Assembly: GCF_002264395.1 (NCBI RefSeq)
Contig: NZ_NFVA01000032.1
Coordinates: 1 to 64,000, forward strand
Length of the DNA stretch: 64,000 nucleotides
Reading direction: 5' to 3'
Origin: Paenibacillus sp. VTT E-133291
GTDB lineage: Bacteria; Bacillota; Bacilli; Paenibacillales; Paenibacillaceae
Below are positions 5,854 through 31,169 of this stretch, piece by piece. The notes beneath the pieces are model-generated. The model ran no database searches, had not been told where the DNA came from, and saw only the letters and a list, made by a program, of their open reading frames with translations. The translations under genes were made by a program, and so were the position numbers. Each line of letters opens with the position of its first letter. The first letter of the stretch is position 1.

Positions 5854-5875
5854 ATTCTAAAGGGGGCAAGAAGTA

Positions 5876-6679: not shown

Positions 6680-6692
6680 AGGGGAAGTAATC

Positions 6693-7565: not shown

Positions 7566-7577
7566 GAGGGTGAACTA

Positions 7578-7766
7578 ATGATGACGACAATGTCGGGTAG
7601 TGTGAAGAATTTCTGGAAGGACGAGGAAGGCCTGGGGACACTGGAAATGATTCTGATTATTGCAGTGCTGATTGCGGTCGTTCTTTTGTTTAAGGACAAA
7701 ATTCAGGAGGTAGTAGAGGCTTTGATTAAAACTGCAGGAGAAAAGAGCCAGGAAGTATTTGAGTGA
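7578..7766 (+). CDS. flp: Flp-type IVb pilin (Tad locus 1)
   Basis: A 62-residue prepilin. The leader ends in EEG-18, followed by LGTLE with Glu at mature position +5 and a 20-residue hydrophobic stretch: the class III signal cut by the Tad prepilin peptidase. The mature protein has about 44 residues, typical of Flp pilins. It should be the major pilus subunit. A strong AGGAGGGTG ribosome site and central operon position fit a highly translated gene. Its TGA overlaps the GTG start of the next gene by four bases. Confidence 0.9.
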   Translation: MMTTMSGSVKNFWKDEEGLGTLEMILIIAVLIAVVLLFKDKIQEVVEALIKTAGEKSQEVFE

Positions 7767-8437: not shown

Positions 8438-8497
8438 ATATTTCCTTGCTAATGGATCTTGTATCTATTGAAGGTAGGGATAAGGAGGGAGGTTTTG

Positions 8498-10756: not shown

Positions 10757-10774
10757 CAGGAGGTTGGTAAGGAT

Positions 10775-11767
10775 ATGGGGGACAGGTACCGGATTAGGGG
10801 GAAGACGAAGGAAGAAGGCAGTATGGTAGTAGAAGCGGCGATGGTTCTCCCGATCTTCCTACTGTTTGTTTTGTTCCTAATTTCTATCGTACAGATGACC
10901 TTGTATTCGACAGCCTTACAAAGCACAGCATCCGATACTGTGAAATCTATTTCAACGCATATGTACCCGGCAGCTTTGGCGGTGCAGAAATGGGGAGCAA
11001 CAAGCGAAGCTGGTGCTGATCCAGTGAAGGGTGGTACGGATCTACCCGCTGGCAATCAAGCTGAATCGAATTGGACGATCCCTCGCTTGTCACTTACAGA
11101 TTGGGGCAGTAGTTATGCAATGTCATTACCTAAGCCGCTGAATGAGTGGGTCATGTCAGCTTTAGAGAAGGGCGAGGGACCTCTGCAGAAGCTACAGGCT
11201 GAGACCTCTGAAAGTGTACTGGATCTAGCGATTAAACCCCTATTAAAGCCTTATCTGTCATCAGACTTGTTGGATTATGATCGAATTCATGTATCTAACA
11301 TTATCGTGCCTGAGTTAAAGAAGGGTACCCGACCTTACTTTGGAATGGTTGTTAGCTATGAGCTGCCGATGAAGGTGCCCTTTCTAAACCAACGCATTGT
11401 ACTTGAGGCAAGTGCTGTTGAACGTCTTTGGATCGGGGATACAGGAGAGGGTACAAATAAGGGCAATGACGGCACTGGTCAACCAGAGGATTTTATTAAG
11501 ATTTTGGAGAAGCCGAATCCAGCTGTAGCCAATAAGCAAGGCAAAGTTCGTGCTAAAATTCCGCCGAATGCTTCCGCTAGCTTATCCGTTTTTTATAAAA
11601 GCGGGGGAAGTACTGCTAGATATTTAGGCTGGAAACAAGCGGATGCGGACGGATATATCGAGTGGGAGTGGAAAATAGGTGTGAATACCACACCGGGCTC
11701 GTGGCCATTTGTAATTCAGCTCGATGACGGTAGATCTATTGAGGTGATGTTCACAGTAGTGAAATGA
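10775..11767 (+). CDS. TadE/TadF-like pseudopilin (Tad locus 1)
   Basis: A 330-residue pseudopilin. Residues EEG-15 followed by SMVVE give a prepilin peptidase site with Glu at +5, and the helix VLPIFLLFVLFLISIVQ follows. The large C-terminal domain is probably outside the membrane; its last 90 residues look like a beta-rich domain (PNASASLSVFYKSGG). The start is ATG behind GCAGGAGG, 18 bases after the previous stop. It belongs to the same operon. Confidence 0.82.
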   Translation: MGDRYRIRGKTKEEGSMVVEAAMVLPIFLLFVLFLISIVQMTLYSTALQSTASDTVKSISTHMYPAALAVQKWGATSEAGADPVKGGTDLPAGNQAESNWTIPRLSLTDWGSSYAMSLPKPLNEWVMSALEKGEGPLQKLQAETSESVLDLAIKPLLKPYLSSDLLDYDRIHVSNIIVPELKKGTRPYFGMVVSYELPMKVPFLNQRIVLEASAVERLWIGDTGEGTNKGNDGTGQPEDFIKILEKPNPAVANKQGKVRAKIPPNASASLSVFYKSGGSTARYLGWKQADADGYIEWEWKIGVNTTPGSWPFVIQLDDGRSIEVMFTVVK

Positions 11768-11790
11768 ATGAAGGGGAAGGAGGGTAATCC

Positions 11791-12300
11791 ATGGCGGAGT
11801 GGGCCTTCTGGGGATGTCTGCCGTTTCTGGCAGCTGCATTTATTACGGATATAAAGTCGATGAGAATACCAAACTGGATCACTGTCTCAGGATTGCTTGC
11901 GGGTCTGCTGGCTCAAGCGCTGATGAACGGCTGGGATGGACTGCTGAAGGCTGGTGTGGGTGCCGCTGCAGGATTTACAATACTTCTAATCTTGCATTTG
12001 ATAGGGGCGGTTGGTGCGGGGGATGTTAAGCTTTTTGCCGGGATTGGAGCGTGGACAGGGATGCTATTTACATTGCAGGTCGTGATGTACTCCGTACTGT
12101 TTGGTGCTTTGATAGGCTGGCTAATTGTCTTAAAGAGACGGGAGACAGGCAGGCGTACGCGTAAGATCTTTAACATAATTTCCGGATTTATATTATTGAA
12201 GAGTTCATTCCTATTACGAAATAAAGATAATGAGCTGTTGAAGTTTCCCTTCATGCTGGCTGTAGTCCCTGGTACCATTTGCGCTTATCTTTATTTTTAA
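11791..12300 (+). CDS. tadV: A24 prepilin peptidase (TadV/CpaA type)
   Basis: A 169-residue multi-helix aspartic peptidase that cuts the Flp prepilin and the pseudopilins of this operon. The two catalytic Asp motifs are visible: FITDIKSMRIPNW near residue 20 and GAGDVKLFAG near residue 77. The N-methylase domain of PilD is absent, as usual for the short TadV form. The start is ATG behind GGAGGG. It is the only prepilin peptidase in the window, and the second Tad-like locus has none. Confidence 0.92.
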   Translation: MAEWAFWGCLPFLAAAFITDIKSMRIPNWITVSGLLAGLLAQALMNGWDGLLKAGVGAAAGFTILLILHLIGAVGAGDVKLFAGIGAWTGMLFTLQVVMYSVLFGALIGWLIVLKRRETGRRTRKIFNIISGFILLKSSFLLRNKDNELLKFPFMLAVVPGTICAYLYF

Positions 12301-12318
12301 AATAGGAGGTGGTAATGC

Positions 12319-17717: not shown

Positions 17718-17800
17718 TATAATCTAATAGCTCTTTAAATCTCTACAGGTAAAAAAAGCATTTTACCAGCAGCTTGGCTATTTACGCCAAGTTGCTTTTT
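17718..17800 (+). terminator. Leader with two stacked hairpins before Tad-like locus 2
   Basis: A TATAAT box lies at 17718-17723 but its -35 is poor. Then a 7-bp hairpin GGTAAAA/TTTTACC (17748-17767) directly abuts an 11-bp stem (17768-17778 with 17786-17796) followed by five T. It is a strong intrinsic terminator. It sits about 40 bases before the first gene of locus 2. It could simply end purU, but the layout mirrors the leader of locus 1. Confidence 0.65.
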
Positions 17801-17839
17801 GTCGTTTTTCAAAACTGTGCTTTTGAGGAGGCGGAAGGC

Positions 17840-18580
17840 TTGGCTTTACAGCGTAGGCAACTGTTGAAACGCAATTATTTCTTCGCAAGTCTCATTTTGA
17901 TTACTGGAGTCGGCGGATTATTAGGCTATGATCTCTACTTCAAGCCCTACGTACTATCCCGAACTGTGGTCAAAATCAAAGTGGAAGGCGGGGAGCTTCT
18001 TCCCAAAAACTATGAGCTGAAAGCAAGTGATTTATATCTGGATTCTGTTCAGACCAAGGATATACCTTCGGGTGTAATTACAGAAATCGCACAAGTGGAG
18101 CACAAAATTACGAATGTAAATCTGACCAATGGAAGTATTTTGACGGCATCCTTAGTGGATGTTAGTGATTTAGAACCCCTAAAGGATGAAGGGATTTTTC
18201 CTATACCGAAGGAGGCTATCTTTGCCATCAATGGTTCACTGCGCAGCCGGGATAAGGTGGATATTTATCTTGTTGATGGAGACCGAGAAAGGCGGAGTGA
18301 ATCGCTTAGCCCAGACAAGAAGGAAGAGGAAGAACTGATCGTGCAGAGCCCAATTAGTGAACCTGCAAAGGAGGTGTTTATATCGGGAGTCACCGTTAAT
18401 TATGTGCGAACAGAAGACAATAATGATGTGCTGGATTCAGAAAAGGGAAACAACAATAATCGTTTTACTTCGACTGGCAAGGTGGCGACACCAGAATTGA
18501 AGCTGAAGAAAAGTGATGGCGAGCGGCTTGGACAATTTTTGGAGCAGGGAAAGAAGCTGTGGATCGTACGGGTCGAGTAG
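17840..18580 (+). CDS. SAF-domain protein, CpaB/RcpC-like (locus 2)
   Basis: A 246-residue protein with a basic N terminus, one membrane helix (about residues 13-30) and an extracytoplasmic SAF-like region. That region has the pattern TVVKIKVEGG, a SAF-type NGSILTASLVD segment and the block RSRDKVDIYLVDG. This is the layout of CpaB/RcpC, a periplasmic or extracytoplasmic Tad component. An Asp/Glu/Asn-rich insertion lies near residues 155-215. The start is TTG at 17840, chosen because GAGGAGGCGG lies at the right distance; frames open further upstream but pass through the terminator hairpin. It is the first gene of locus 2. Confidence 0.78.
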   Translation: MALQRRQLLKRNYFFASLILITGVGGLLGYDLYFKPYVLSRTVVKIKVEGGELLPKNYELKASDLYLDSVQTKDIPSGVITEIAQVEHKITNVNLTNGSILTASLVDVSDLEPLKDEGIFPIPKEAIFAINGSLRSRDKVDIYLVDGDRERRSESLSPDKKEEEELIVQSPISEPAKEVFISGVTVNYVRTEDNNDVLDSEKGNNNNRFTSTGKVATPELKLKKSDGERLGQFLEQGKKLWIVRVE

Positions 18581-18592
18581 GAGGGAAGAGTC

Positions 18593-19657
18593 TTGAAAAT
18601 ATTTAGTCTAGGCCTAGAACAGTTAACCATTAATGATATCAAAAATGCAGGATTTATTGTAATTACACAAAGTGTACTTCCTGATCCATCTCATACAGAG
18701 GGCCATATGCTAATGGTTACCAGTGATCAGATTCAAGCTCAGTCACTTAGCGAACTGCGCCGGAATTATCCGGGCTCAACGATCTTATATGTATATTTGC
18801 AAAAGGGAATCAGTGGTTACCAAGCTGTACATATGCTGTGTGAAAGCTTAGGGATCTATTTTATACCTCCTCGTTCTACCTCGTCAGCGGTGATAGAGAA
18901 GATTCGCTTTATTCTAGACGAGAATGGCGAGGAACGAGGTAATTTGGTTGGTTTTTTTGGATCTGGTCCGGGGATCGGCTGCACTAGTGTAGCCAAACTG
19001 TTCGCAAGACGAATTGCCGCGGCGGGCCTTCGTGTTATTGTCCTTGGACTTGATTTATATGATCCCGGATATGACCGCAAAGCTACCATTAGTCTGGATA
19101 GGCTTCGATCAAGGCTCACAGGGAAGATGATTCATGATGAGGATTTTGAGCAATTGATTAAGCAAGACGGTTACTCGTATCTCCCAGGCAATTACGATTA
19201 CTTAAGCGCACAAGATTATCAGGAGGATGAGATTGAATATTTTTTGTCTAGAGCTGGGGCAAATGCAGATGTGGTTATTGCTGACTTCGGCTCTATCCCG
19301 GAAAGTGCTGCATGGTATGTCGGAATGCACAAATCGGCACTGCGTATGATCGTCACTCATCCAAAGCATGAATACAGACTCGAACCTCTGCTAGAGCTTG
19401 CTGGGCATATGGATCTACATCCACATGATTTTCAACTAATTATTAATCGCAGTAATGTGGAAGAAATATCTTCTCCTAAAAATCTAGCGCTTCGCTTTGG
19501 GACTGAAATTTTGCTGGAGCTGCCGTATTACCAGCCCTTGCAGGAGAGCTTACCCCTAGGCAAAAAAGAGCTGCAGCATGTGGATGATAAGGTACATTCT
19601 CTGCTCGTGTCCATGAGCCTGGCGCCAGAAGCTAAAAAGAAAGGTATATTCCTATGA
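18593..19657 (+). CDS. TadZ/CpaE-like protein with degenerate Walker A (locus 2)
   Basis: A 354-residue protein with an N-terminal receiver-like half and a MinD/ParA-type C-terminal half from about residue 113. The nucleotide loop reads GSGPGIGCTS: the essential Lys is Cys. A Walker B-like DVVIADFGS is kept. TadZ proteins often have atypical Walker A motifs, and this one probably does not hydrolyse ATP. The start is TTG at 18593 behind AGGAGGGA. Its stop overlaps the ATG of the ATPase gene by four bases. Confidence 0.82.
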   Translation: MKIFSLGLEQLTINDIKNAGFIVITQSVLPDPSHTEGHMLMVTSDQIQAQSLSELRRNYPGSTILYVYLQKGISGYQAVHMLCESLGIYFIPPRSTSSAVIEKIRFILDENGEERGNLVGFFGSGPGIGCTSVAKLFARRIAAAGLRVIVLGLDLYDPGYDRKATISLDRLRSRLTGKMIHDEDFEQLIKQDGYSYLPGNYDYLSAQDYQEDEIEYFLSRAGANADVVIADFGSIPESAAWYVGMHKSALRMIVTHPKHEYRLEPLLELAGHMDLHPHDFQLIINRSNVEEISSPKNLALRFGTEILLELPYYQPLQESLPLGKKELQHVDDKVHSLLVSMSLAPEAKKKGIFL

Positions 19658-21099
19658 ATGGAAATCAACCGAACCGTCCATTGTTCTCTCTAAAAGAAAG
19701 TATCCTACGTATGAGCAAACCGGGCAAGGAAGACTTTTATGTATTTTTGCAAAAAATGAAAAACGATATGAACGAAGGGCTGGAACGTGAGGATGATGTT
19801 TACTTCGAGTTAAATGCGAAGGCGCTAATTGGGGATCCGCAGGCGGTTAGCTTTTTTATGAATGAGATAGAGAAATACTTGCGGAAGATACCCTTTACGG
19901 GCATGGTTCCAGAAGCATACAGAACAGCTGCAGAAGCGCTCTATCATGAGTGGAAGGGCTTTGGTCCAGCGTATCGTTGGTTTACGGATCGTGCATACAG
20001 TGAATCAACCGGGCTACAGATGATCGGAAAGCAGATCTTTTATAACCATAAAGGTGAGTTTGTAGTTTATCCATATGAGATGCCTTCACTAGATCGGGTC
20101 GAACAGTTAAAGCGCTCCTTATTAAAAAGTGATCCCAACAAAAAGCTGAACAAGGACAACCCTTCAGTGGAGTTTAAAATGGATGACCCGCTCTGGCCTG
20201 GCCGATTTATTAGGCTTGCCATTTGGGTATCCCCGAGAGTATGGGATGGCTTCACCACAATATCGTTACGGCGGCAGGTTGTAGAGTTTCTGAGTCTAGA
20301 CGATCAGGCGGGTACGGAATGTATTCCTGCGGAAGCGGTTGAAATGATTCGGGTGTTATCATCTACCTTTCGCAATAGCATTATTGCGGGCGCTGTAGGC
20401 TCGGGAAAAACAACCTTTGCAAATACGATCGTCGGTGAGCAACTGCTCGGATCTTCATCCTGTATGGGTGTAGTGATGATAGAAAAGCATCCGGAGTCGA
20501 TTTTACCTTATCAAATTAAAGGGCACCGAATCATTCCAATCCAGGCTGCGAACGAGGAATTGATGGAGGTAGGGGTAGAGTCTCTGCGGCATGATCCGAA
20601 CATTTTGTATATGACCGAGATGCGGTATAACGAATGGGAATTTTATCTGTGGAGTGGGGAAAAAGGGTATGACGGCATCACCGGAACGTTCCACACCGTT
20701 GATTCGGAGGATATTCCTTATCAAGGCGCTTTTGCCGTGTCGACAAGGATTGGCGGGAGCCTTAAGGGGCATTTGATCTCTGCACTGAAATCATGCGAGC
20801 TGGTCTTTATTCTGGAAAGTGTTCCGAACGGAAAGAAGCGGTTAACTCGAATATCGGAAGTCTTTTATGACGAGGAAAAGAACTCTGTATTTGCGAATGA
20901 TCTGATGCGCTGGGAACCCCAGAAGATGCGTTGGTCCTATAATGACAAGCTGACGAAGAACCTGATTCTGAAGATGACTAGGAAAAATGAGCAGGCAACA
21001 CAGTTGCTTCAGAAAGAGCTGGGACAGCTTGCAGCAGCAAAACCAATGGATCAGCCTATCAAAGAAAGCTTGAAATCTAAGATCATTCTTAACGAGTGA
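19654..21099 (+). CDS. TadA/VirB11-like secretion ATPase (locus 2)
   Basis: A 481-residue hexameric-type secretion ATPase. Walker A is GAVGSGKTT (about residues 249-257) and the Walker B-like segment is ILYMTEMR near residue 315. The His box region reads YDGITGTFHTVD. The N-terminal 200 residues differ strongly from TadA of locus 1, and the nucleotide-binding half is divergent too, so this is not a recent duplicate. It should energise the locus 2 machine. The 4-base ATGA overlap couples it to the TadZ-like gene. Confidence 0.88.
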   Translation: MNGNQPNRPLFSLKESILRMSKPGKEDFYVFLQKMKNDMNEGLEREDDVYFELNAKALIGDPQAVSFFMNEIEKYLRKIPFTGMVPEAYRTAAEALYHEWKGFGPAYRWFTDRAYSESTGLQMIGKQIFYNHKGEFVVYPYEMPSLDRVEQLKRSLLKSDPNKKLNKDNPSVEFKMDDPLWPGRFIRLAIWVSPRVWDGFTTISLRRQVVEFLSLDDQAGTECIPAEAVEMIRVLSSTFRNSIIAGAVGSGKTTFANTIVGEQLLGSSSCMGVVMIEKHPESILPYQIKGHRIIPIQAANEELMEVGVESLRHDPNILYMTEMRYNEWEFYLWSGEKGYDGITGTFHTVDSEDIPYQGAFAVSTRIGGSLKGHLISALKSCELVFILESVPNGKKRLTRISEVFYDEEKNSVFANDLMRWEPQKMRWSYNDKLTKNLILKMTRKNEQATQLLQKELGQLAAAKPMDQPIKESLKSKIILNE

Positions 21100-21111
21100 G
21101 GAGGTGAAACC

Positions 21112-22161
21112 GTGGATTTATTATTGTATATTTTTCGTTTTGTCCTTCATTTGTTAATTGTATGGGGAATTTGGCTGCTCATTAAACCGCTAATCGAACG
21201 GCATTTACGACAGGTAGGTCAGAAGTTCGATTATCGGATCAAACATAAAATGAGTATTTTTGGAAAAAGGGTTAGCTCGGTGAAAAAAAGGTTGTGGCTC
21301 TACCGTCATCTAGATAATCTTTTATATTTTGTACACCGAAAATATGAGCCGGGCATTAGCGTTATGCGATTTTTCATGCGTACAGCAATAGTGTTTATCG
21401 CGGTTTTTCTATCAGGACTACTGACGCTAAGCGAGCTTCCTGGGCAATTGAGTTTTAACAATCCTTTTCTGGAGGGGATAACTTTTAACGAAGGGCGTTC
21501 GATTCAGGGGGCTTGGAGATTTCCACTTTTTATGGCTGTGATTTCTGCGACGATTCCTTATTTTCGTATGAGATACATCTACGCGCAGAGGAAGGTGCAT
21601 GGAAGCTATGATTTACTCGATGTAGTCAAAATTTCCACCAAATTCACTCACTTGTCGGTAGATTCCATTCTCGATCGGACAACGGATTTTCTTACGGATA
21701 AGAATGTGCTGAAGGGTCCTTTGAAGCTGCTAGGGGCTGCATTTTCCAATTACAGTAGTGAGAAGGAGCTTGTTGAGGAAGCCGGGAGATTTTCGAATGC
21801 GATTGGCACTACCTTCGCCCTAGAATTTATATCGGATCTGCTCTATGCCGAGAAGGAGGGGACCCGTTATTTAAAAAGCTCATTGATGCTGTTAAATCGT
21901 TCCATGGAACAACAGAGGGAAACGATTTTGACTGTGAAAGCGGGGAGTAGAGATGCGATTAGCCTTGGCTTATACGGAAATCTTTTGGTGCTGATATCAA
22001 CGGTTGGAACCTTTATGTACATGCTGAAGCCTGATATCTATTTCCAATTGCAGTTTGAGACTACAGTAGGACTTTCTTTTTTGATGGTGATCATCTCCGG
22101 TCTTTTTATTTCTTTTGTGATTAGCACTATTCTTGCCAGACCTAAACTGGACTACCACTAA
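21112..22161 (+). CDS. TadB-like membrane platform protein (locus 2)
   Basis: A 349-residue membrane protein: an N-terminal helix (5-25), two helices near residues 80-102 and 135-152, a soluble domain of about 140 residues, and two C-terminal helices. Position after the ATPase and the topology match TadB/type II secretion F proteins, but the sequence lacks the usual T2SSF motifs by eye, so it is a distant or specialised relative. The start is GTG at 21112 behind a perfect AGGAGGTGA. Confidence 0.7.
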   Translation: MDLLLYIFRFVLHLLIVWGIWLLIKPLIERHLRQVGQKFDYRIKHKMSIFGKRVSSVKKRLWLYRHLDNLLYFVHRKYEPGISVMRFFMRTAIVFIAVFLSGLLTLSELPGQLSFNNPFLEGITFNEGRSIQGAWRFPLFMAVISATIPYFRMRYIYAQRKVHGSYDLLDVVKISTKFTHLSVDSILDRTTDFLTDKNVLKGPLKLLGAAFSNYSSEKELVEEAGRFSNAIGTTFALEFISDLLYAEKEGTRYLKSSLMLLNRSMEQQRETILTVKAGSRDAISLGLYGNLLVLISTVGTFMYMLKPDIYFQLQFETTVGLSFLMVIISGLFISFVISTILARPKLDYH

Positions 22162-22172
22162 GGTGATGAGCT

Positions 22173-23042
22173 ATGGACAGATTGTTACTATTAATTACTG
22201 TAATCGGGATTGTATATGTCGCTTTACTTGTCTTTATAAGCAGCAGCAGTAAACAGGAAAAATATCTTGTCCGATTAGGACTGCGGTGGAATAAGTTTGG
22301 GGAACGGATGCAGGGAGATAGACTCCAGCAATTATTGAACGATTCAGGTTTATCTATTGCGGCCCGTAAAATTACGCTTTTCCGTTACTCGGCAGCGCTG
22401 ATTTATTTAATAACTCAAGTCATCAGTGATTTTATTCGTTCAAATTCTTTTTCTATCTATGACCCTCTAATTGCTCTACTTATTCTCATAATTAGCAGTC
22501 CGATGCGCTATCTTCCGTTTGGCTGGGTGCTTGCATGGCTTCATCAAAAAACGGTTATTAAAAAAGACGGTGAGCTGATCTCTTTCATCCGTCTATATGA
22601 GAATAATCGGCTGCGCAAGCGCGGATATGCGCAATTTGGCACTTTTTGCGGGAGTACGGCTGGACATTTTCAATATATACGTCAGGACTTGTACGAGTTG
22701 TCTGAACGAGCAGTAGATGAGGGTGTGGAGGGGGCGATTGAATGGTTCTGTGCCAAGTTTCCGGATAATCATAGTTTTATTAATGACATCCGGTCCATTT
22801 TGCTGGCTACTGAGGGTATGGAGGACGACACAGAAGCGGCGAATTATTTGCGTGAGCAAGGTAAGATTATATCCAAAATCTCCAGTGATCAGTATTTGAA
22901 AAAGTGGTCTTTTATCGGTGATTTATCTACGATCATTAATGTGATCCCATCGATTGCTACTTTTTTGATGATTGTCGCGATGGCGATGCAGTACATTTTG
23001 CTGATCAAAGGGAATTTTAATGGTGTCGGCATGTTCCAGTGA
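22173..23042 (+). CDS. TadC-like membrane platform protein (locus 2)
   Basis: A 289-residue membrane protein with an N-terminal helix, two central helices near residues 67-110 and a C-terminal helix. A cytoplasmic domain lies between. It occupies the tadC position, 11 bases after the TadB-like gene, and has the same topology, but only weak sequence resemblance. The start is ATG at 22173 behind AAGGTGATG. The following 56 bases are extremely AT-rich and may hold an internal promoter or processing site. Confidence 0.68.
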   Translation: MDRLLLLITVIGIVYVALLVFISSSSKQEKYLVRLGLRWNKFGERMQGDRLQQLLNDSGLSIAARKITLFRYSAALIYLITQVISDFIRSNSFSIYDPLIALLILIISSPMRYLPFGWVLAWLHQKTVIKKDGELISFIRLYENNRLRKRGYAQFGTFCGSTAGHFQYIRQDLYELSERAVDEGVEGAIEWFCAKFPDNHSFINDIRSILLATEGMEDDTEAANYLREQGKIISKISSDQYLKKWSFIGDLSTIINVIPSIATFLMIVAMAMQYILLIKGNFNGVGMFQ

Positions 23043-23098
23043 AAAATTGTATATTCAATATTATTTTAAAAATATAAAATAAAAGGGAGATTTTAACA

Positions 23099-23290
23099 AT
23101 GAAAAAGGATGCTATTTCTACAGGTTTGTTTATTGCTATTGGATTTTTATGTGTGGCCATCGTAATTGCTGTTTTGATTCCTGTAGTTCGGGAGGTCATT
23201 GATGCTACGGATGATAATAAACCGACGATTCCGGGTGTGACTTTTATTCAACCACTGGATTCCAGCCAAACTTCAACTGCTCGGGTTTAA
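23099..23290 (+). CDS. Tiny one-helix pilin-like protein A (locus 2)
   Basis: A 63-residue protein that starts MKKDAIS and enters a hydrophobic helix at residue 8 (about 8-31), then a polar tail. It sits where the Flp pilin sits in locus 1, but has no Gly cleavage site and no +5 Glu, so it is not a normal prepilin. It resembles the next gene product (MKKD-x-IS, then FxAIGF). A good AAAGGGA ribosome site precedes it. It may be a structural subunit used without cleavage. Confidence 0.72.
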   Translation: MKKDAISTGLFIAIGFLCVAIVIAVLIPVVREVIDATDDNKPTIPGVTFIQPLDSSQTSTARV

Positions 23291-23297
23291 TTCGATT

Positions 23298-23441
23298 ATG
23301 AAAAAAGACTCTATCTCCATAGCAATGTTTCTGGCTATTGGCTTTGTGATCGCAGGGATGTTTATCACAGTAGCTACGCATATCATTGGCAGCAGTCAAG
23401 ACGATATCATCACACATACTAAGCAAGTAGAGCAATATTAG
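23298..23441 (+). CDS. Tiny one-helix pilin-like protein B (locus 2)
   Basis: A 47-codon gene, easily missed because of its size. The product starts MKKDSISIAMFLAIGF, continues as a hydrophobic helix to about residue 31 and ends in a polar tail (QVEQY). It is a clear paralogue of the 63-residue protein just upstream, sharing MKKD-x-IS and FxAIGF. It begins seven bases after the previous stop without a strong ribosome site of its own, so it is probably coupled. The next gene follows after 15 bases behind GAAGGAGGCG. Confidence 0.72.
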   Translation: MKKDSISIAMFLAIGFVIAGMFITVATHIIGSSQDDIITHTKQVEQY

Positions 23442-23456
23442 AAGGAGGCGTTTCTA

Positions 23457-23837
23457 TTGAAGGAGACCGTCCTCCGGGCATTATTCATGTGGCTTGTCCT
23501 GTTTATTATCCTGCAGCCCATATTTACCTATATTGATTATTTGCTAGATTTACAGGTCAAAGCTAATACGTCCTACATCACACAAAAAGCTGCAACAGAG
23601 GGGATGGTCACAGCGTCTATGCGGAACGAAGTGATTTCAAATCTCAAGGCGATTGGGTTCTCAGAGGGTTCTATAGAAATTACGAGCAGTACGGATACCA
23701 TTCAAGAACGCAAGCAACGAATTGATGTGTATGTAACAGCACCGCGGATAAATTTGTTTCCGTATAACTTTTCCACAGTTTCGCAGCCGACCCGATATTA
23801 TGGCCATGGGTCAATTATGAGTGAATATCTCGATTGA
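23457..23837 (+). CDS. TadE-like anchored protein (locus 2)
   Basis: A 126-residue protein with one N-terminal helix (about residues 5-25) and a small extracytoplasmic domain with the sequence GFSEGSIEITSS near residue 68. The layout (short N terminus, helix, small beta-rich domain) matches TadE-like pseudopilins. No prepilin cleavage motif is present. The start is TTG at 23457 behind AAGGAGGCG. Product name is by position and shape only. Confidence 0.68.
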   Translation: MKETVLRALFMWLVLFIILQPIFTYIDYLLDLQVKANTSYITQKAATEGMVTASMRNEVISNLKAIGFSEGSIEITSSTDTIQERKQRIDVYVTAPRINLFPYNFSTVSQPTRYYGHGSIMSEYLD

Positions 23838-23857
23838 TTAAGGGATGAGCCTAATTT

Positions 23858-24355
23858 ATGGATTACATTATTAAGCTGGCATTTGTCCTGCTGATCTTTA
23901 TCTACTCCTGGTTCTTTCAGATCCAGAATCAGGAGTGGGACATGCTGCGCAGCATGCTAAAAGATGCAAACAATATCGCTGTTCACGATGCTGCGCAGGA
24001 ATTAGATGAAACTGAACTCACACGAGGTCGTCTAATTATCGATCCCGCGCTTGCTTACGATACTTTTCAACATGCCTTGCAGGCGAATCTTGGGCTTGAT
24101 AACGGCCTTTCTCCTCAAGTAGGCAGTCGTTTTAAGAATCAAGTAAAGATCGTGAAGTTTGATATTATTGATGATTCCGATGGAGTGACTTTTCCGCTTT
24201 TATACGAGGATAGTGAATATGGCATTACCAAATACATAGAGGGTCCCTCGGTTATTGCCGTTATCGAGACGGAACATCCGTTGCTGATCTCCAGAGCCAA
24301 AACACAAGAGCCTATCAGAGTACCTGCAGTTCAGGAGTATAAGTTCAATAAGTAG
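23858..24355 (+). CDS. Second TadE-like anchored protein (locus 2)
   Basis: A 165-residue protein with the helix IIKLAFVLLIFIYSWFF at the extreme N terminus and a soluble extracytoplasmic domain. As with its neighbour there is no Gly/Glu prepilin signal. It could be another anchored pseudopilin-like subunit. The start is ATG at 23858, 20 bases after the previous stop, with GGGATGAG as ribosome site. Function is inferred only from context. Confidence 0.66.
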   Translation: MDYIIKLAFVLLIFIYSWFFQIQNQEWDMLRSMLKDANNIAVHDAAQELDETELTRGRLIIDPALAYDTFQHALQANLGLDNGLSPQVGSRFKNQVKIVKFDIIDDSDGVTFPLLYEDSEYGITKYIEGPSVIAVIETEHPLLISRAKTQEPIRVPAVQEYKFNK

Positions 24356-24390
24356 GGAAAATCCAATTGAGACTAGGGAGAGATTCGGGG

Positions 24391-25128
24391 ATGAAGAAGA
24401 GAGTTGTAAAGGCGACTTTGGCAGCGGCAATGTTATTTAGCGTGGTTTTAGGGCAGGGAGTGGCTGTAAAAGCGGAAACGATTACACCAGTAGTTACGGC
24501 TAAGCCAATCACATCCGAGGTACCCGCAGCAACGGTGAAACCTGCAGTTACGCCAGCGCCTATCATGAGGGATAATCTGTTTAAATTTGGTCTGAAGAAA
24601 GACTTGGAGTTGCCTGTGACAGTTACGGCGGGTGGGTTGAGTTATACTCTGGAGAAGCTGATGTTTTACGACGTAAAGTCTAAAGAAGCACAATCTCTAA
24701 TGAAGCTGTATGGTTATTCAGATCGAATTTATAAAACACCTACTAAATATATGGTATGGACTAAACTCACCATTGAAAATAAGGGTAGTAAAATCATTCA
24801 ATTAAGTGCTAAAGATCCGAGTTCGAAATGGTATTTTAAAATGGATGGTAATAATCTTCTTGAACCTGCACCTAAAAATAAAATGTTAGAGTTGAACAAT
24901 AAAGAAGCATTGTGGAATTGGGTATTGAAACCAGGTGAAAAGCTATCTAGCTATCAGATGTATGGGTACATTAAAGACCCTTCAGTTATTTCTATATACG
25001 TTAATCTTGGAGGCGATTTTGAAGAAAAATACATTGTTAAACGCCAGGGGAGTAATTTATATGAAGAAAATTTGGATTGTTCTGCTTACAGTTATACTAG
25101 TTTTTGTATATATCCCACAGAACATTAA
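24391..25128 (+). CDS. Exported protein of locus 2, unknown function
   Basis: A 245-residue secreted protein. The signal peptide MKKRVVK...VAVKA ends near residue 28 and is followed by a Thr/Pro/Val-rich linker (30-60) and an Ig-like domain. The segment WTKLTIENKGSKIIQLSAKD recalls extracellular DUF4352-type domains, but that is only a resemblance. AGGGAGA places the start at ATG 24391 rather than a TTG upstream. Its last 68 bases overlap the start of the next gene in another frame; the last 22 residues (from YEENLDCSAY) are encoded within that overlap and may be a run-on tail. Confidence 0.75.
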   Translation: MKKRVVKATLAAAMLFSVVLGQGVAVKAETITPVVTAKPITSEVPAATVKPAVTPAPIMRDNLFKFGLKKDLELPVTVTAGGLSYTLEKLMFYDVKSKEAQSLMKLYGYSDRIYKTPTKYMVWTKLTIENKGSKIIQLSAKDPSSKWYFKMDGNNLLEPAPKNKMLELNNKEALWNWVLKPGEKLSSYQMYGYIKDPSVISIYVNLGGDFEEKYIVKRQGSNLYEENLDCSAYSYTSFCIYPTEH

Positions 25129-27325
25129 AGCAGCTAATTCGCAAAGCAAAACAGTGTCAATACCTTCAGAAATTCTTAATGGGTCTGCAAATGCTCAAAA
25201 ATCTTACTACTTAGATCTTCCAAGTGGAGTATCCAATTCGGCAATTAATGTCTCTTCTCTTAAATATAATGGCACTAATCAAAAAGTTGCTCTTACAATG
25301 GAGAATGGAAAAATAAAGGTTACTTTAAAGGGCGTTGAAGCAAAACAACGAATAGATAATTTACTCGGGTATAATGCCTCATTTGAAACCCTTTTTTTAA
25401 CAACTCCTGGTAATTCTATTTGGCGATATTCAGACGGAGTAAGATGGCAGATAAATGAATGGGATCCATACATTAATGCTCAGAAACATAACGATAAAAA
25501 TGGACAAGGTAATGGTACACCTAGAAATGATCCCCCGGATATGACGGTGGTAACTCAATCAGCAGTATCACGTTCGGGAATTAAATGGTATGACAAAAAC
25601 GTGAATTCGGTAATTGATTCATCTCAGATCATAGAGTCAACCGTCCAATTAGTTGTACCTACAGATACACTTCCATCAACATATGTTAATCATAATGTCT
25701 TAAATGGGAAGCAATTTATTATTTATTATAAAACTGACGCAGCTACGCAAAATTTTGATCCTGAACAATTAAGTTCGAACTTTGACAAAAGTGGTCATGC
25801 GTTGGGTAGGCGTTATAAAACAAAATTAAACTACTACTTTACAGGTTCGGCTAATGTAACTACTTACAAATACAGTGGAAACGTCTCTTTTGACTACACT
25901 CTCCCTACAGAACCAACACTTACCGGTACGGTAACTCTAAATAAACCTAATCCCAATCCAACAAAATTGGGAGATAAAGACGAACCCGTTCAAATCTCAT
26001 TAATAGGGCTGCTGCAAGGATACAATGATGCTTCAAACATTGACGAGTGGGTGTTCTATGCTAAAGAGAAAGATAAGAACAACACACTCAAAACGAAAAA
26101 GGAATCTGCAAAGACATTTAACGTAAGCGCTTTATTTGACTTTGAGATCAAAAAGTCGAGTGTAACGGGCGAATATTTTACTCAGGAATATGCTTTAACC
26201 GTTCTCGTCCGCTTTAAAAAGCCAATCGTCACAAAGAGTGGAACCATCACCTCTCTGGAACAGCCCCTACAGATTTCAGCAGGTGTTTATAAAAACAAAC
26301 CTCTGGTTACTTTTCCTCCACCTCCGACCAAGCCAACAGAACCGGAAGGAAAGCCGCCTATTGCAAGAATATCAACAGCTAGATACATAAAAGCAGGGGA
26401 TGATATGCTCGTTAGCGGAAATGCTTCCTATGATCCGGATGGATATATCACTGATTATGCTTGGAGCACATCTGGAGCGCAGGGAGAAATAGGAAATGTC
26501 CCAAGGGGGTATGTATGGTATACCAGAGAGCAAGTTGGAGAGACATTTCCTATAGCGCTCACAGTCGTTGACAATGATGGACAAATAGGTAGTACAAGTA
26601 CAGAAGTTACCGTCATTGAGCCGAAACCAGCAGCAATTATAGGTATAGAAGGAATACTTAAACAAAATCGTAAAACGACATTGTTTAATAGAAGCCAGAG
26701 TCCAACACGCTTTCCGTTAATACCATCGAAAACACGAGTTACCATCACTGCGGTTTCTGTTGGGACGAATGAAGATATTAAGTACAGTGGCACATTGTCT
26801 GATTTCGAAAGCAAAGACGTCTTATTTAAGAAACCTGGAAAATATAAGGCTACGATCTATGTGGAAAACACGCTTGGATATTCTTCAAGTAATGAGATCA
26901 CTTTTGATATTGTGCCAGATGAAGCGCCGTACAACTATTTTACTCTGCCTGGAGTGCTATATCGAAGTCCTGATTACGGTAATAAAGCGGTGGTTTCATT
27001 GGATGATATCTCCTATTCGCCTGATAAAGATGTAGTGGGTCGGAGACTCTGGGAGTATCGCTATGATTCAAATAATGACGGGAGTTTCAGCGGAGAAGCA
27101 TGGGTGATCTTCAGTAATGAGAACAAAGACCGCTTAAATTTAGAGCTGAGCGAGGTAGGGAAATATGAAATCCGACTTACTGTGTTTGAAGAGTTTGGTC
27201 AACCCACCATTGATGAGTTTGTGACAGAAGCTGATCGGAAATCTACAAATTCAGATGGACAAAAGTTAAGCTCACGGATTGTAGAAGTGAAAAATCGAGC
27301 GCCAGAAGTTGATTGGTCCTGGTAG
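25061..27325 (+). CDS. Large exported PKD-domain protein (locus 2)
   Basis: A 754-residue secreted protein. The signal peptide MKKIWIVLL...NIKA ends near residue 27. The first 400 residues show no known domain. A PKD domain follows (about 430-525; DGYITDYAWSTSG and VVDNDGQIGS), then two further Ig-like regions. It ends NRAPEVDWSW, which looks like the opening of one more repeat that is then cut off. A long open frame upstream of 25061 is ignored, because the MKK start has a signal peptide directly behind it and CAGGGGAG before it. It may be displayed or exported by the locus 2 machine, or simply use Sec. Confidence 0.8.
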   Translation: MKKIWIVLLTVILVFVYIPQNIKAANSQSKTVSIPSEILNGSANAQKSYYLDLPSGVSNSAINVSSLKYNGTNQKVALTMENGKIKVTLKGVEAKQRIDNLLGYNASFETLFLTTPGNSIWRYSDGVRWQINEWDPYINAQKHNDKNGQGNGTPRNDPPDMTVVTQSAVSRSGIKWYDKNVNSVIDSSQIIESTVQLVVPTDTLPSTYVNHNVLNGKQFIIYYKTDAATQNFDPEQLSSNFDKSGHALGRRYKTKLNYYFTGSANVTTYKYSGNVSFDYTLPTEPTLTGTVTLNKPNPNPTKLGDKDEPVQISLIGLLQGYNDASNIDEWVFYAKEKDKNNTLKTKKESAKTFNVSALFDFEIKKSSVTGEYFTQEYALTVLVRFKKPIVTKSGTITSLEQPLQISAGVYKNKPLVTFPPPPTKPTEPEGKPPIARISTARYIKAGDDMLVSGNASYDPDGYITDYAWSTSGAQGEIGNVPRGYVWYTREQVGETFPIALTVVDNDGQIGSTSTEVTVIEPKPAAIIGIEGILKQNRKTTLFNRSQSPTRFPLIPSKTRVTITAVSVGTNEDIKYSGTLSDFESKDVLFKKPGKYKATIYVENTLGYSSSNEITFDIVPDEAPYNYFTLPGVLYRSPDYGNKAVVSLDDISYSPDKDVVGRRLWEYRYDSNNDGSFSGEAWVIFSNENKDRLNLELSEVGKYEIRLTVFEEFGQPTIDEFVTEADRKSTNSDGQKLSSRIVEVKNRAPEVDWSW

Positions 27326-27338
27326 GAGAGGTGCTTAA

Positions 27339-30300
27339 ATGAAAAAAACAAAAGAAATACTTTCACTAGTAATTATAATCACTATCTTATTCGGAGTTTT
27401 TCCTAGTCAGGGAGTGTATCTTCAGACAGCAGAGGCTGCGACGGGTGATCCTAATTTCATTACTTATAAAGATATAAATATACCTGCTGATGGTGATTTT
27501 TATGACGCTGGTTGGAATTATGGTACTATGCGTGGGACAATAAATAACCAAAAACTAACGAATATTAAATATAATCGTACCACTAAGCAAATTACATTTG
27601 ATATTAGTTCAGATGCAACATTGACTGTAGGAGTAAACTTGTATAAATCACAAAGTGCTCTAGATAGACGTGTTGTTCGAGCGGATCTCTGTGTAGCGGC
27701 AATACCAGAGGGGGCACCATTAGATTTACCAGTCTACCAATATAATTGTCCGAGCCACTGGTCAAATCCAAATACCAATTGGACCCCATTGTATAGGAGT
27801 TTTTTTGCTGGACCGTTTGACCCGAATACATTCGATCATACATTTAATCTTGCGACAGATGTTCCTTATGGAAATGTTATAGGGAATTTAAGTTATGGTG
27901 AACTTCCAATAGGTTTAGTTATTAATTACAGTTTTGGTGCAGGTCAACAGGATGGATTTCGTGGATATGGTCCAGAACATGGATATGGAGGGCCGTACAT
28001 TGGTTGGAGTTTTCAAAGAGTATTTCCTTTGATACCTAATAGTCCACCTACCATTTCGTTAAATACACCCAATAATCAAGTCCTGCAGAACGAGCCTGGA
28101 CGAAACACACTTAACATCGAGGGATATGTCCATGATCCAGATAATGATGATCTTATCGTAAGTGCGGAGATACCAAATATATTTTATAGGAAGACGGTAG
28201 TCTCTCAAACGAAAGGGTATCAGTATTTCTCTATCCCTGTAGACGCTGTGGCTGATTCGATCCCGCCGGGCGATTATACGATGACTGTAAAAGTAGCAGA
28301 TCCTTCAAATATGTCAGAATCCGCGAGTATGACCTTTAAAGTTACAAACAGACTGAAGCGAAACGCTTTTGTTCTCGTTACTAGTCCTATAGAGAATAGC
28401 GGCACCACCTATGAAGATTATGAGTGGGATGCTAAGTACGCTGATCGAGTGAGATATGATCATGATCCGAATTACTTTGATAACTCAATGGGGATTATAG
28501 GGGATTCGGGACTATGGAGGACGAGCCTTTACACTTCATTTCCGTATACCGGACAATATGTAGTGAGTTATCAAGCTAAGGATATACCGAAACAGGATGC
28601 TCGCTTTGCTGAATATCAGATGTGGAGTAAAGATGCCGCATCTACGATGAGTTTTAAAGTTCACCGTAAGCCAATAGCGCTTTTTTCAGCAAGGCTTATC
28701 AATGGAAATGTTCAATTAACAGATTCATCCTACGATTTAGATCATATTACAAGTGCTGATAAAGGGATTGTGCAGTGGCAATGGCAATATAAAAAGAGTC
28801 TTGATGAGATGTGGATCGACGGGCAGCCACCTGGGGGAGTTTTTGAAAAGGACAGCTACGACATACGTTTAAGAGTCCGTGATGTGGATGGAGATAATGG
28901 AATCGGTGTATGGAGTGATTGGTGTCAACGTACTGTGGGGAATGCGTCTGTTAATCTACCACCCGTTGCATTATTTACCGTTAATCCGAATATCGTTTCT
29001 TACCGTAAATTTACGAGTATTATAGACAAGTCTTTCGATCCAGATAATGATCCATTGGATGTATATTACTGGACTGTAATCAAAGACGGATGGAATAAAG
29101 TATGGGAACATTGGGGTGGAGCTACAACACCGCCGAACATCGCATCATTCGGTGAAGGGAATTATCAACTCAATCTACAAGTACATGATAATCGTGGCTT
29201 GTGGTCGGATGGGTACAGTCAAAATGTACAGGTAGTCAATCATCCACCGGCTGCAGCATTTACAATGCCTAACGAAATTTACCGCGATACGATTATCACA
29301 ATGGATAACTTAACACCAGATCCGGATGAAGATGGAGATGTTTTATCTTATGCCTGGAATGCAAAGTTTAATGACTCTCCATACTACTGGGCAGGAAACA
29401 ACCGTTATCAATCTATGACCATTCGTGATCTTATTAACCGTAACGGTATATCACATAAAAAAGCTATTTCTGAGAGTTGGGAAATGCAGCTCACAGCCTC
29501 TGATGGAAGGTTAAGCTCTTATGCGACACGTACATTTATGGTTAAGAATCATGTTCCTGTTGCTAAGATTAACGGACCGTCATCCGTAAATCAGTATGAT
29601 ACAAAACAATTTACGTCAGGCGATATTGATGAGGATACATCAGATCAAGGCTCGTTAGAATACTACTGGAAAGTAACGAACAGTACGGGTGAAATGAAAT
29701 CATATCTTACTCGCGATATAACACTTACTTTCTCAGATCCAGGGGTATATACGTTAGAACATTGGGCAATCGATCAAATAGGAGATAAGTCGAATATCGC
29801 TGGATTGCAAGTCCAAGTGAAAGAGAATTTGGCGCCTACTATGACTTTAACTAGCCCTTCAGGTACAGCAACAAACCCATCTGTGATTGATGCGGATCAA
29901 GGCGATCCATTAATTAAATGGACTTACGCAGATCCGGAAAATGATTCACAAGAGAAATACAGGTTAGAGTTCTTTACGAAGGATGGTCTATTAGTCTCCA
30001 CGATAGAAAATCCGGATCCTACAGGATTGCTCAGACAATATCAAATCCCAAATAATACATTTGAACGGTTTGAATACTTTACAGTGCAAGGTCGGGCATA
30101 CTCCAAATTTTCATGGTCAGATGTATCAAATGAAAAAACATTCATCATCGATAACGCACCTAAGCCGGGATTCACTCTGATCACAGATACTGGTAAAGAT
30201 GCGGCTAAGGTACCGATCTACAGGACGGACGTTCTGAACATTAAGAGTACCGCCTCTGATCCGGACGAACCAAAAGGAGATATAATCAGCCACAAGTATT

Positions 30301-31169
30301 TCTTAAAACCATCAAGTGGAACAGAAGCCCTAGCGAGCACTCAAAAGGACTTCACGAAGCAGTTTAGTAGTAATGGTGTCTTTACCTTTAGACAAATCGT
30401 TACAGATTCATTGGGTCTGCAACGTGAGCTTTCGCAGAACATTACAGTAGTCAACCGGATACCGACGACTACAATAACGTACCCAACCAGTGTTGATCCA
30501 TCTAACCCGACAATCGCAAGCACACTTACCCCGATCATTAAATGGGATTATCAAGATGAAGACGGAGATCTTCAGCAACGTTATAAGGTGCGAATTATTA
30601 ACTTGGCCACAGGTGTAATCAAGGTACAATCTGGTGAGCAAGTATCAAGCGCTAAGCAATGGCAGATTCCAGTTGGTTCACTGATCGAAAACGAGAAGTA
30701 TGCAGTCGAGGTTGAAGTTTTTGACGGGTTCAGCTGGGGCAATGTTTCTGCACGTAAATATTTCATGGTTAATCTATTAAGTATAAAAGGTGGAGTGAAG
30801 CACACTGAAGAGTGGAACAACAACCGTAAGGGTTATAATCTGAAAAAGAGCGGCAATAAGGAGAGTCCAAGAGGATACAATGTATTTTGGGCAGGTGAAC
30901 GTTTTGTTCTGCAAGGTACAGCAACAGGTCTCCCAGATACTGTGCAAGTGACTATGAACGGAGGGTTTACTACGCAGCTCAGCCCAACTAACGACGATAA
31001 AACCTTCTGGACAGGTGAAATGTACGATAGCTCTTTTGAAAAGCTACCCGATGGCCCTGTTACTTTTACCTTTACGGCTCAGAATGCGTACAACACCAAA
31101 ACGGATACCGTTACAGTTGTTATATCATCAGATTGGGCGGAGTATTTCCAAAGTCATCGAATAAAGTAG
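27339..31169 (+). CDS. Giant exported PKD/Ig-repeat protein (locus 2)
   Basis: A 1276-residue secreted protein with signal peptide (about residues 1-34, cut near AEA). An N-terminal unrecognised domain (35-230) is followed by an array of Ig-like/PKD-type units. Their linkers repeat the pattern V-N-x-x-P-x-A near residues 540, 633, 738, 829, 940 and 1038, with Asp-rich DPDNDP-type loops that probably bind calcium. No LPXTG, SLH or C-terminal helix is present, so it is released or held by other means. It follows the 754-residue PKD gene after 13 bases. Likely an adhesin or scaffold; base composition is more AT-rich by eye than locus 1. Confidence 0.83.
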   Translation: MKKTKEILSLVIIITILFGVFPSQGVYLQTAEAATGDPNFITYKDINIPADGDFYDAGWNYGTMRGTINNQKLTNIKYNRTTKQITFDISSDATLTVGVNLYKSQSALDRRVVRADLCVAAIPEGAPLDLPVYQYNCPSHWSNPNTNWTPLYRSFFAGPFDPNTFDHTFNLATDVPYGNVIGNLSYGELPIGLVINYSFGAGQQDGFRGYGPEHGYGGPYIGWSFQRVFPLIPNSPPTISLNTPNNQVLQNEPGRNTLNIEGYVHDPDNDDLIVSAEIPNIFYRKTVVSQTKGYQYFSIPVDAVADSIPPGDYTMTVKVADPSNMSESASMTFKVTNRLKRNAFVLVTSPIENSGTTYEDYEWDAKYADRVRYDHDPNYFDNSMGIIGDSGLWRTSLYTSFPYTGQYVVSYQAKDIPKQDARFAEYQMWSKDAASTMSFKVHRKPIALFSARLINGNVQLTDSSYDLDHITSADKGIVQWQWQYKKSLDEMWIDGQPPGGVFEKDSYDIRLRVRDVDGDNGIGVWSDWCQRTVGNASVNLPPVALFTVNPNIVSYRKFTSIIDKSFDPDNDPLDVYYWTVIKDGWNKVWEHWGGATTPPNIASFGEGNYQLNLQVHDNRGLWSDGYSQNVQVVNHPPAAAFTMPNEIYRDTIITMDNLTPDPDEDGDVLSYAWNAKFNDSPYYWAGNNRYQSMTIRDLINRNGISHKKAISESWEMQLTASDGRLSSYATRTFMVKNHVPVAKINGPSSVNQYDTKQFTSGDIDEDTSDQGSLEYYWKVTNSTGEMKSYLTRDITLTFSDPGVYTLEHWAIDQIGDKSNIAGLQVQVKENLAPTMTLTSPSGTATNPSVIDADQGDPLIKWTYADPENDSQEKYRLEFFTKDGLLVSTIENPDPTGLLRQYQIPNNTFERFEYFTVQGRAYSKFSWSDVSNEKTFIIDNAPKPGFTLITDTGKDAAKVPIYRTDVLNIKSTASDPDEPKGDIISHKYFLKPSSGTEALASTQKDFTKQFSSNGVFTFRQIVTDSLGLQRELSQNITVVNRIPTTTITYPTSVDPSNPTIASTLTPIIKWDYQDEDGDLQQRYKVRIINLATGVIKVQSGEQVSSAKQWQIPVGSLIENEKYAVEVEVFDGFSWGNVSARKYFMVNLLSIKGGVKHTEEWNNNRKGYNLKKSGNKESPRGYNVFWAGERFVLQGTATGLPDTVQVTMNGGFTTQLSPTNDDKTFWTGEMYDSSFEKLPDGPVTFTFTAQNAYNTKTDTVTVVISSDWAEYFQSHRIK

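What the first reader, a model, noticed from the sequence alone, without database searches (positions are those of the whole stretch)
17840..24355. A Tad-like machine without prepilin processing
In locus 1 the pilin, TadE and the 330-residue pseudopilin all show Gly followed by Glu at +5, and a peptidase is encoded. In locus 2 none of the four small membrane proteins (23099, 23298, 23457, 23858) has this site, and no A24 peptidase is encoded. Subunits that start directly in a helix (MKKD-x-IS) would make a filament or pore of a different kind. I know of no described system of this form.
Basis: partly seen in the sequence, partly recalled or inferred. Interest (0 to 1): 0.7.

Follow-up and report, generated by a model that had tools for sequence, protein, structure and literature searches.

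The report
Pilus machine with pre-trimmed subunits
A bacterial pilus-type machine appears to make its building blocks already in their trimmed form, so it seems not to need the trimming enzyme that such machines are thought to require; the same kind of machine sits on many large plasmids of related bacteria.

Summary
Locus 2 (17774-24355) is a conserved operon under purifying selection. Its four small membrane proteins lack a prepilin leader, and no A24 peptidase lies in it. Processing does look absent, but the subunits are most likely not a different kind of protein: they look like Tad-type subunits that lost the leader, so that Met1 takes the place of mature residue 1. Evidence: (1) leader-bearing relatives of the 126- and 165-aa proteins exist, and the leaderless Met1 aligns at their mature residue 1 (or 2); (2) in genome G263 the tiny pilin starts at mature residue 1, keeps Glu5 and matches the mature part of a canonical Flp (22 of 48 identical); (3) an A24 gene lies within 50 kb in 7 of 8 leader-bearing loci against 0 of 45 leaderless ones (22 leaderless loci beside a separate canonical tad locus set aside). 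Leaderless loci occur on many large Bacillales plasmids, often near a VirD4-type coupling protein. The window's copy is a stable chromosomal locus of Paenibacillus, probably plasmid-derived. Filament formation and function (attachment, mating contact) are inferred, not shown. New variant of a known kind.

The parts
17774..18580 (+). SAF-domain / CpaB(RcpC)-like protein (TTG start, position uncertain)
   Evidence: NCBIfam pilus_cpaB E=0.0017 and Pfam SAF E=0.031, both under cut-off; homolog in 19 of 19 genus regions
18593..19657 (+). TadZ/ParA-like protein
   Evidence: no Pfam or NCBIfam match of its own; same slot annotated 'ParA family protein' on several plasmids
19654..21099 (+). TadA-like (T2SSE/VirB11-type) ATPase
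   Evidence: Pfam T2SSE 23.7 bits against a cut-off of 24.9; NCBIfam TIGR03819 E=3.5e-12, under cut-off; conserved with locus 1 TadA at R187, R206, G246, K252, E281, R312, E322, R324 and H347
21112..22161 (+). TadB-like platform protein
   Evidence: profile of this family matches both platform proteins of canonical tad loci in L148 and L150 at E 1e-9 to 1e-19
22173..23042 (+). TadC-like platform protein
   Evidence: profile matches canonical platform proteins at E 1e-7 to 1e-20
23099..23290 (+). 63-aa leaderless pilin-like protein (MKKDAIS...)
23298..23441 (+). 47-aa leaderless pilin-like protein (MKKDSIS...)
23457..23837 (+). 126-aa leaderless TadE-like protein, distant DUF4320 relative
   Evidence: family in 56 of 57 loci; two relatives match DUF4320 at E 5e-5 and 1.3e-5; model has helix 2-48
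23858..24355 (+). 165-aa leaderless TadE-like protein
   Evidence: family in 55 of 57 loci; model pLDDT 91.4 with helix 2-46
24367..25128 (+). predicted secreted protein, fast evolving
   Evidence: 31-83% identity in the 19 other genus regions
25061..27325 (+). PKD-domain surface protein 1 (ATG inside the 24935 ORF)
   Evidence: Pfam PKD_4 E=5.8e-9
27339..31169 (+). PKD-domain surface protein 2 (1276 aa)
   Evidence: Pfam PKD_4 E=7e-11
7578..7766 (+). canonical Flp prepilin of locus 1 (comparison)
   Evidence: G|LGTLE
11791..12300 (+). A24 (TadV) peptidase of locus 1 (comparison)
   Evidence: PF01478 E=9e-20

Best explanation
Locus 2 is a Tad-derived (type IVc) envelope machine with born-mature subunits. 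Shown by sequence: a TadA-like ATPase; two TadB/TadC-like platform proteins; two tiny one-helix proteins in the slot where relatives have Flp; two TadE-like proteins; reading frames that start where mature residue 1 lies in leader-bearing relatives; no peptidase in the locus; nearly all leaderless loci on one side of the ATPase tree. Inferred: each subunit inserts N-in/C-out like a mature prepilin; removal of the formyl group (and sometimes of Met) replaces leader cleavage in freeing the N-terminal amine; ATPase and platform push the tiny subunits into a short or long filament capped by the 126- and 165-aa subunits; the PKD proteins are its surface partners. On plasmids I think it serves cell-cell contact for transfer by the separate VirB4/VirD4 system encoded there; on the Paenibacillus chromosome it serves attachment. 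Leader loss alone I hold at about 0.85; filament plus contact function at about 0.4.
For: Leader-bearing homologs with Met1 of the leaderless proteins at mature residue 1 (126-aa family) or 1-2 (165-aa family). Canonical Flp in the tiny slot in G480, G373 and L101. G263 tiny: stop codon directly before its GTG start, M-K-N-V-E, 22 of 48 identical to mature G480 Flp1 at offset 0. A24 within 50 kb: 7 of 8 leader-bearing against 0 of 45 leaderless loci (Fisher p=5e-8, related rows). 36 of 37 leaderless ATPases on one side of the tree, fork support 93/82. Purifying selection. Long helix from residue 2 and beta strands in both models. On plasmids: coupling protein in 24 of 26, VirB4-type match in 23 of 26 records; M23 wall hydrolase fused to the 165-aa homolog in L081.
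Against: No filament or function was ever observed. Position 5 is never acidic in 72 distinct leaderless tiny-like ORFs, unlike canonical pilins. Apart from G263 the tiny proteins are too divergent for a direct match to Flp; they rest on gene position. Many leader-bearing 126/165-aa homologs also lack Glu at +5, so their cleavage is itself a prediction. PDB fold searches found no pilin (inconclusive). G498 has leaders but no A24 within 357 kb. All 33 whole genomes tested have some A24 gene. In-frame Gly just upstream of the start occurs in 3 of 54 126-aa loci, and a G-x4-E/D reaching into the protein in 6 of 54 and 2 of 53 loci; in those printed the frame upstream is 4-8 codons, holds the ribosome-binding GGAGG and no ATG/GTG/TTG, so I read it as chance.
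Confidence: 0.6

Rival explanations
1. The machine no longer makes a filament: the one-helix proteins form a membrane-embedded pore or plug, and ATPase plus platform drive export of a substrate (PKD proteins, or on plasmids DNA handed over by the nearby coupling protein).
For: Coupling-protein match within 12 kb of the ATPase in 16 of 26 plasmid records (coordinates); Replic_Relax genes beside it; no acidic residue at position 5.
Against: 23 of 26 records also match a VirB4-type family, and L103 has PrgI, T4SS pilin and AAA_10, so DNA has another route. Chromosomal copies lack the coupling protein nearby: in the window's genome the two matches are on other contigs.
Confidence: 0.22
2. The subunits are processed after all, in trans, by the locus 1 TadV or by the other A24 enzyme of the genome.
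For: Both enzymes are in the genome; locus 1 is adjacent.
Against: No site at the head of the helix and little or no upstream frame. Leaderless loci occur far from any A24 gene (0 of 45 within 50 kb). G150 and G191 of the genus have the canonical-type ATPase match only, not locus 2.
Confidence: 0.05
3. One reading: subunits of an unrelated kind that make a different filament or pore.
For: Most tiny proteins cannot be aligned reliably to Flp; fold search gave no pilin.
Against: Leader-bearing homologs of the other two subunits, canonical Flp in the same slot, and the G263 case.
Confidence: 0.1
4. A decaying tad locus that lost its pilin leaders and peptidase together with function.
For: Two of 22 genus genomes lack it; the P. 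sonchi plasmid copy has its TadB-like gene in two pieces.
Against: Median dN/dS 0.046-0.102; intact order in the window and 19 of 19 other genus genomes; many distinct plasmid copies.
Confidence: 0.03

Closest known systems
Tad / type IVc pili
   Same: TadA-like ATPase, TadB/TadC-like pair, CpaB-like and TadZ-like genes in tad order, Flp slot, two TadE-like proteins
   Different: no class III leader, no G-x4-E, no TadV in the locus; ATPase and platform so divergent that Pfam barely or does not see them
Gram-positive tad-like loci without recognisable prepilins (C. kluyveri and others; Imam 2011, PMC3244431, section 12 read)
   Same: tad genes and no protein with a prepilin motif
   Different: those keep tadV; the paper does not report leaderless homologs of pilins. 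Not compared by sequence here
MSH pili (Denise 2019, PMC6668835, passages)
   Different: that paper suggests that they use one from another system; here no leader is left to cut
Pili of conjugative plasmids (TP114/IncI2 type IV pilus, PMC9045228, search listing only)
   Same: a type IV pilus beside a transfer system on a plasmid
   Different: those pilins belong to another class; leader loss not reported there

Membership tests
Tad (type IVc) pilus | TadA-type ATPase | tested here: met
   aligns with locus 1 TadA; homology clear but under curated cut-offs
Tad (type IVc) pilus | TadB and TadC platform proteins | tested here: met
   profiles reach canonical platform proteins, E 1e-7 to 1e-20
Tad (type IVc) pilus | TadZ and CpaB/RcpC | tested here: inconclusive
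   sub-threshold or annotation only
Tad (type IVc) pilus | Flp prepilin with G|x4E leader | tested here: not met
Tad (type IVc) pilus | TadE-type pseudopilins with leader | tested here: not met
   homologous to leader-bearing TadE/DUF4320-like proteins but without the leader
Tad (type IVc) pilus | TadV (A24) peptidase in the locus | tested here: not met
   only A24 matches are in locus 1 and on C226
Type IV filament superfamily (four core proteins, PMC10191384 passages) | pilin with class III signal peptide, and prepilin peptidase | tested here: not met
   as above; so it is filed as Tad-derived, not as a standard member
Type IV filament superfamily (four core proteins, PMC10191384 passages) | extension ATPase and platform protein | tested here: met
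Type IV filament superfamily (four core proteins, PMC10191384 passages) | pilin fold and helical filament | tested here: inconclusive
   models have a long N-terminal helix plus strands; PDB search without a convincing match; filament not testable here
Conjugative type IV secretion system | VirD4 coupling protein with the locus | tested here: not met
   the two coupling-protein matches of the window's genome are on other contigs; on plasmid relatives present in 24 of 26
Conjugative type IV secretion system | VirB4 ATPase as part of this machine | tested here: inconclusive
   23 of 26 plasmids match, elsewhere on the plasmid; not searched in the window's genome

The most novel reading that the evidence does not exclude
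A type IV filament lineage that has dispensed with prepilin processing: subunits are translated mature, deformylation replaces the peptidase, and the machine still assembles a filament, used by large Bacillales plasmids for mating contact and domesticated on Paenibacillus chromosomes. It would break the stated rule that every type IV filament system has a prepilin peptidase.
Probability: 0.4. Interest if true: 0.85.

Novelty: new variant of a known kind. Interest (0 to 1): 0.68.

Why it matters
[quoted passage not shown] Here a lineage spread over Bacilli keeps the last two and lacks leader and locus peptidase together, with intermediates that suggest the order of loss. That makes an assumed step testable: is leader cleavage needed for assembly itself, or only for delivery of the subunit? 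It also points to a surface machine on plasmids that typing tools call non-mobilizable (23 of the 26 records fetched; typing lines).

Tried and rejected
Hidden leaders: upstream frames are short or have no start codon. In G480 a leader did hide behind a start that is not ATG, GTG or TTG; I had first listed that protein as leaderless and corrected it, so a few others could be hidden in the same way. The motif scan is rough: its 96 'tiny' ORFs contain spurious ones and miss some real ones (the window's 47-aa protein among them). It found 1 of 96 (degenerate), 2 of 56 (MA| at residue 2) and 0 of 55.

The machine as the plasmids' only DNA-export apparatus: weakened by VirB4-type matches in 23 of 26 records and by PrgI and T4SS pilin in L103.

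MAFFT alignment of tiny proteins to Flp: used only for G263, since end gaps make leaderless proteins line up anyway. The same caution holds for the exact Met1 column of the 126/165-aa families, though their homology covers the whole length.

Counts, rows set aside: 20 window-genus loci, G214 and G505 (A24 belongs to a separate canonical Flp locus beside them), G202 (fragment), W23 (subunits not found), the second G480 copy (not read), G537 (same as W26). G332 is counted among the 45 with its N-terminus unread, and some of the 45 are near-copies or lie on short contigs. A first Fisher run had wrong counts; one search replaces it. L101 also has a second, leaderless tiny ORF at 10393, so it may be mixed.

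Literature: the Bacillus cereus conjugation review (PMC9673590, passages) has no hit for Tad, CpaF, TraM or pilin; DUF4320 gave no paper. The library holds open papers only.
Full report
WHAT IS THERE. Locus 1 (3456-13974) is a canonical tad locus with Flp, TadE-like proteins and an A24 peptidase. Locus 2 (17774-24355), followed by a secreted protein and two PKD proteins up to 31169, is a second, very divergent tad-like operon: SAF/CpaB-like, TadZ-like, TadA-like ATPase, two platform proteins, then proteins of 63, 47, 126 and 165 aa. Pfam reaches no cut-off for any of its nine proteins, so family ties were established with profiles built here.

OBSERVATION. The four small proteins have no G-x4-E site at the head of the hydrophobic helix, and locus 2 has no A24 gene; the genome has two A24 matches, in locus 1 and on C226, a contig that also carries two T2SSE-type ATPase genes. 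In-frame stops lie 5, 1, 7 and 19 codons upstream of the 126-, 165-, 63- and 47-aa starts. The genes are not relics: ATPase at >=86% identity in 20 of 22 genus genomes, 12 of 12 genes in order in 19 of 19 other genomes, a transketolase-like gene (named from recall) downstream in each of the 19, median dN/dS 0.046-0.102.

RELATIVES. Versions with the same order occur in other Paenibacillaceae genera and on plasmids labelled Paenibacillus, Sutcliffiella, Rossellomorea, Cytobacillus, Niallia, Halobacillus, Terribacillus, Planococcus, Metabacillus, Priestia, Alicyclobacillus, Bacillus, Brevibacillus and Thermoanaerobacterium (26 records fetched). Profiles found the 126-aa family in 56 and the 165-aa family in 55 of 57 loci. 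Up to five or six tandem tiny genes occur. In the class, the 165-aa profile matched 31 of 398 genomes drawn, 12 of them of the window's genus.

LEADER LOSS. Outward searches turned up relatives that do have leaders (DERG|, NEQG|, KNKKG| and similar): L101, L102, G188, G113, G498, G263, G480, G373 and nine database proteins among P0225-P0235. In alignments the leaderless Met1 falls at mature residue 1 in the 126-aa family and at residue 1 or 2 in the 165-aa family. In the tiny slot G480 has two canonical Flp, G373 five in tandem (G|YVSIE) and L101 one (G|MISVE). The clearest single case is G263: its tiny gene starts with GTG directly after a stop codon, the protein reads M-K-N-V-E, and it matches the mature part of G480 Flp1 without gaps at offset 0, 22 of 48 identical, while its 126- and 165-aa homologs keep leaders and a TadV follows. 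So there are three grades: all subunits with leaders (G480, G373, L101); tiny subunit without, TadE-like ones with (G263, L102, G188, G113, G498); all without (the window and most loci).

PEPTIDASE. A24 within 50 kb on the same contig: 7 of 8 leader-bearing loci (L101 43 kb, L102 21 kb, G188 9 kb, G113 12 kb, G263 and G480 adjacent, G373 36 kb; not G498, 357 kb) against 0 of 45 leaderless loci (23 plasmid records, 11 loci in 10 Paenibacillaceae genomes, 11 other genomes). Two of the plasmid records have an A24 gene more than 150 kb away (W07, W22). Fisher p=5e-8 is descriptive only: rows are related and some contigs short. Set aside were the 20 window-genus loci and G214 and G505, where a canonical tad locus with Flp and TadV lies beside the leaderless one (shown for the window, G214 and G505). 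Every whole genome tested has some A24 gene (14 of 14 and 19 of 19), so processing in trans is argued against by the missing site, not by missing enzymes.

HISTORY. In a 48-row ATPase tree 36 of 37 leaderless rows lie on one side of a fork with support 93/82; G505, on a very long branch, lies elsewhere. The nearest rows to the genus copies are the P. sonchi plasmid (L077) and L060, whose contig carries a TubZ-type gene. I infer that the window's locus came from a plasmid and became a fixed chromosomal locus.

PLASMID CONTEXT. Of 26 plasmid records 24 match a TraG/TraD-type coupling protein, 16 of 26 within 12 kb of the ATPase (coordinates; in W23 only a fragment). Replic_Relax and S1-domain genes are often beside it. 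23 of 26 also match a VirB4-type family, 18 over its cut-off; in L103 PrgI, a T4SS pilin and an AAA_10 ATPase confirm it. So these plasmids probably transfer by a type IV secretion system, with the Tad-like machine as an added surface apparatus. In L081 the 165-aa homolog is fused to an M23 domain, which places it outside the membrane, at the wall.

MECHANISM. Shown: gene content, start positions, conservation, selection. Predicted: the 126- and 165-aa proteins have one long helix from residue 2 to 48 and 46, then strands, as expected of a mature TadE-like subunit; PDB searches were inconclusive. Inferred: N-in insertion, deformylation in place of cleavage, extraction by ATPase and platform, PKD proteins as adhesive partners, mating contact on plasmids. 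Against an ordinary filament: none of 72 distinct leaderless tiny-like ORFs has an acidic residue at position 5, 21 have one at position 4.

NOVELTY. Pelicic 2023 (PMC10191384, passages) names the prepilin peptidase among four proteins found in every type IV filament. Imam 2011 (PMC3244431, passages and section 12) mentions tad-like loci without prepilin motifs but with tadV. Denise 2019 (PMC6668835, passages) notes MSH loci without a peptidase, perhaps borrowing one. Makarova 2016 (PMC4858521, passages) lists the peptidase as a main component. My searches found no description of a leaderless, peptidase-free lineage; the library holds open papers only.

Noticed in passing
window 31080-31169; L060, L062, L078, L083, L084, L086, L087, L089: The giant PKD proteins downstream of the machine end in similar tails (NGV-K-D-V-V-I followed by a short stretch ending in H-R/K-x-x; WxEYFxxHR in the window's genus). 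It might be a sorting or docking signal for the machine. The W[STQA][DE][YF] form was found in 22 of 34 tails read, mostly the genus.
   Followed up: partly
own genome contig C44 (L070): A third tad-like set (TadA, TadB, TadC, a leaderless TadE-like protein) beside a ParM-like gene (named from recall) and a Replic_Relax gene: probably a plasmid or integrated element.
   Followed up: partly
own genome C130:10946, C230:58782, C209:56613: Further T2SSE-type ATPase matches; C230 also has a TraG-D_C coupling-protein match at 33686. Not examined.
   Followed up: no
L081 12153-13049; L095 11298-12221: The 165-aa TadE-like subunit carries a C-terminal M23 peptidase domain in two Planococcus plasmids (Pfam for L081; annotation for L095).
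   Followed up: partly
L077 11216-14533: The P. sonchi plasmid copy has its TadB-like gene in two pieces and a short TadZ-like protein (246 aa), so it may be partly broken or misassembled.
   Followed up: no
L083, L063, L078: Tandem amplification of the tiny pilin-like gene (six, five and five copies), like the five tandem canonical Flp genes of G373 (L154).
   Followed up: partly
L080 3574-4884; L094 2513-3892; L096 2474-3826: In Alicyclobacillus plasmids a transglycosylase (SLT) gene lies upstream in the same gene run (Pfam for L080), another wall-penetration function tied to this machine.
   Followed up: no
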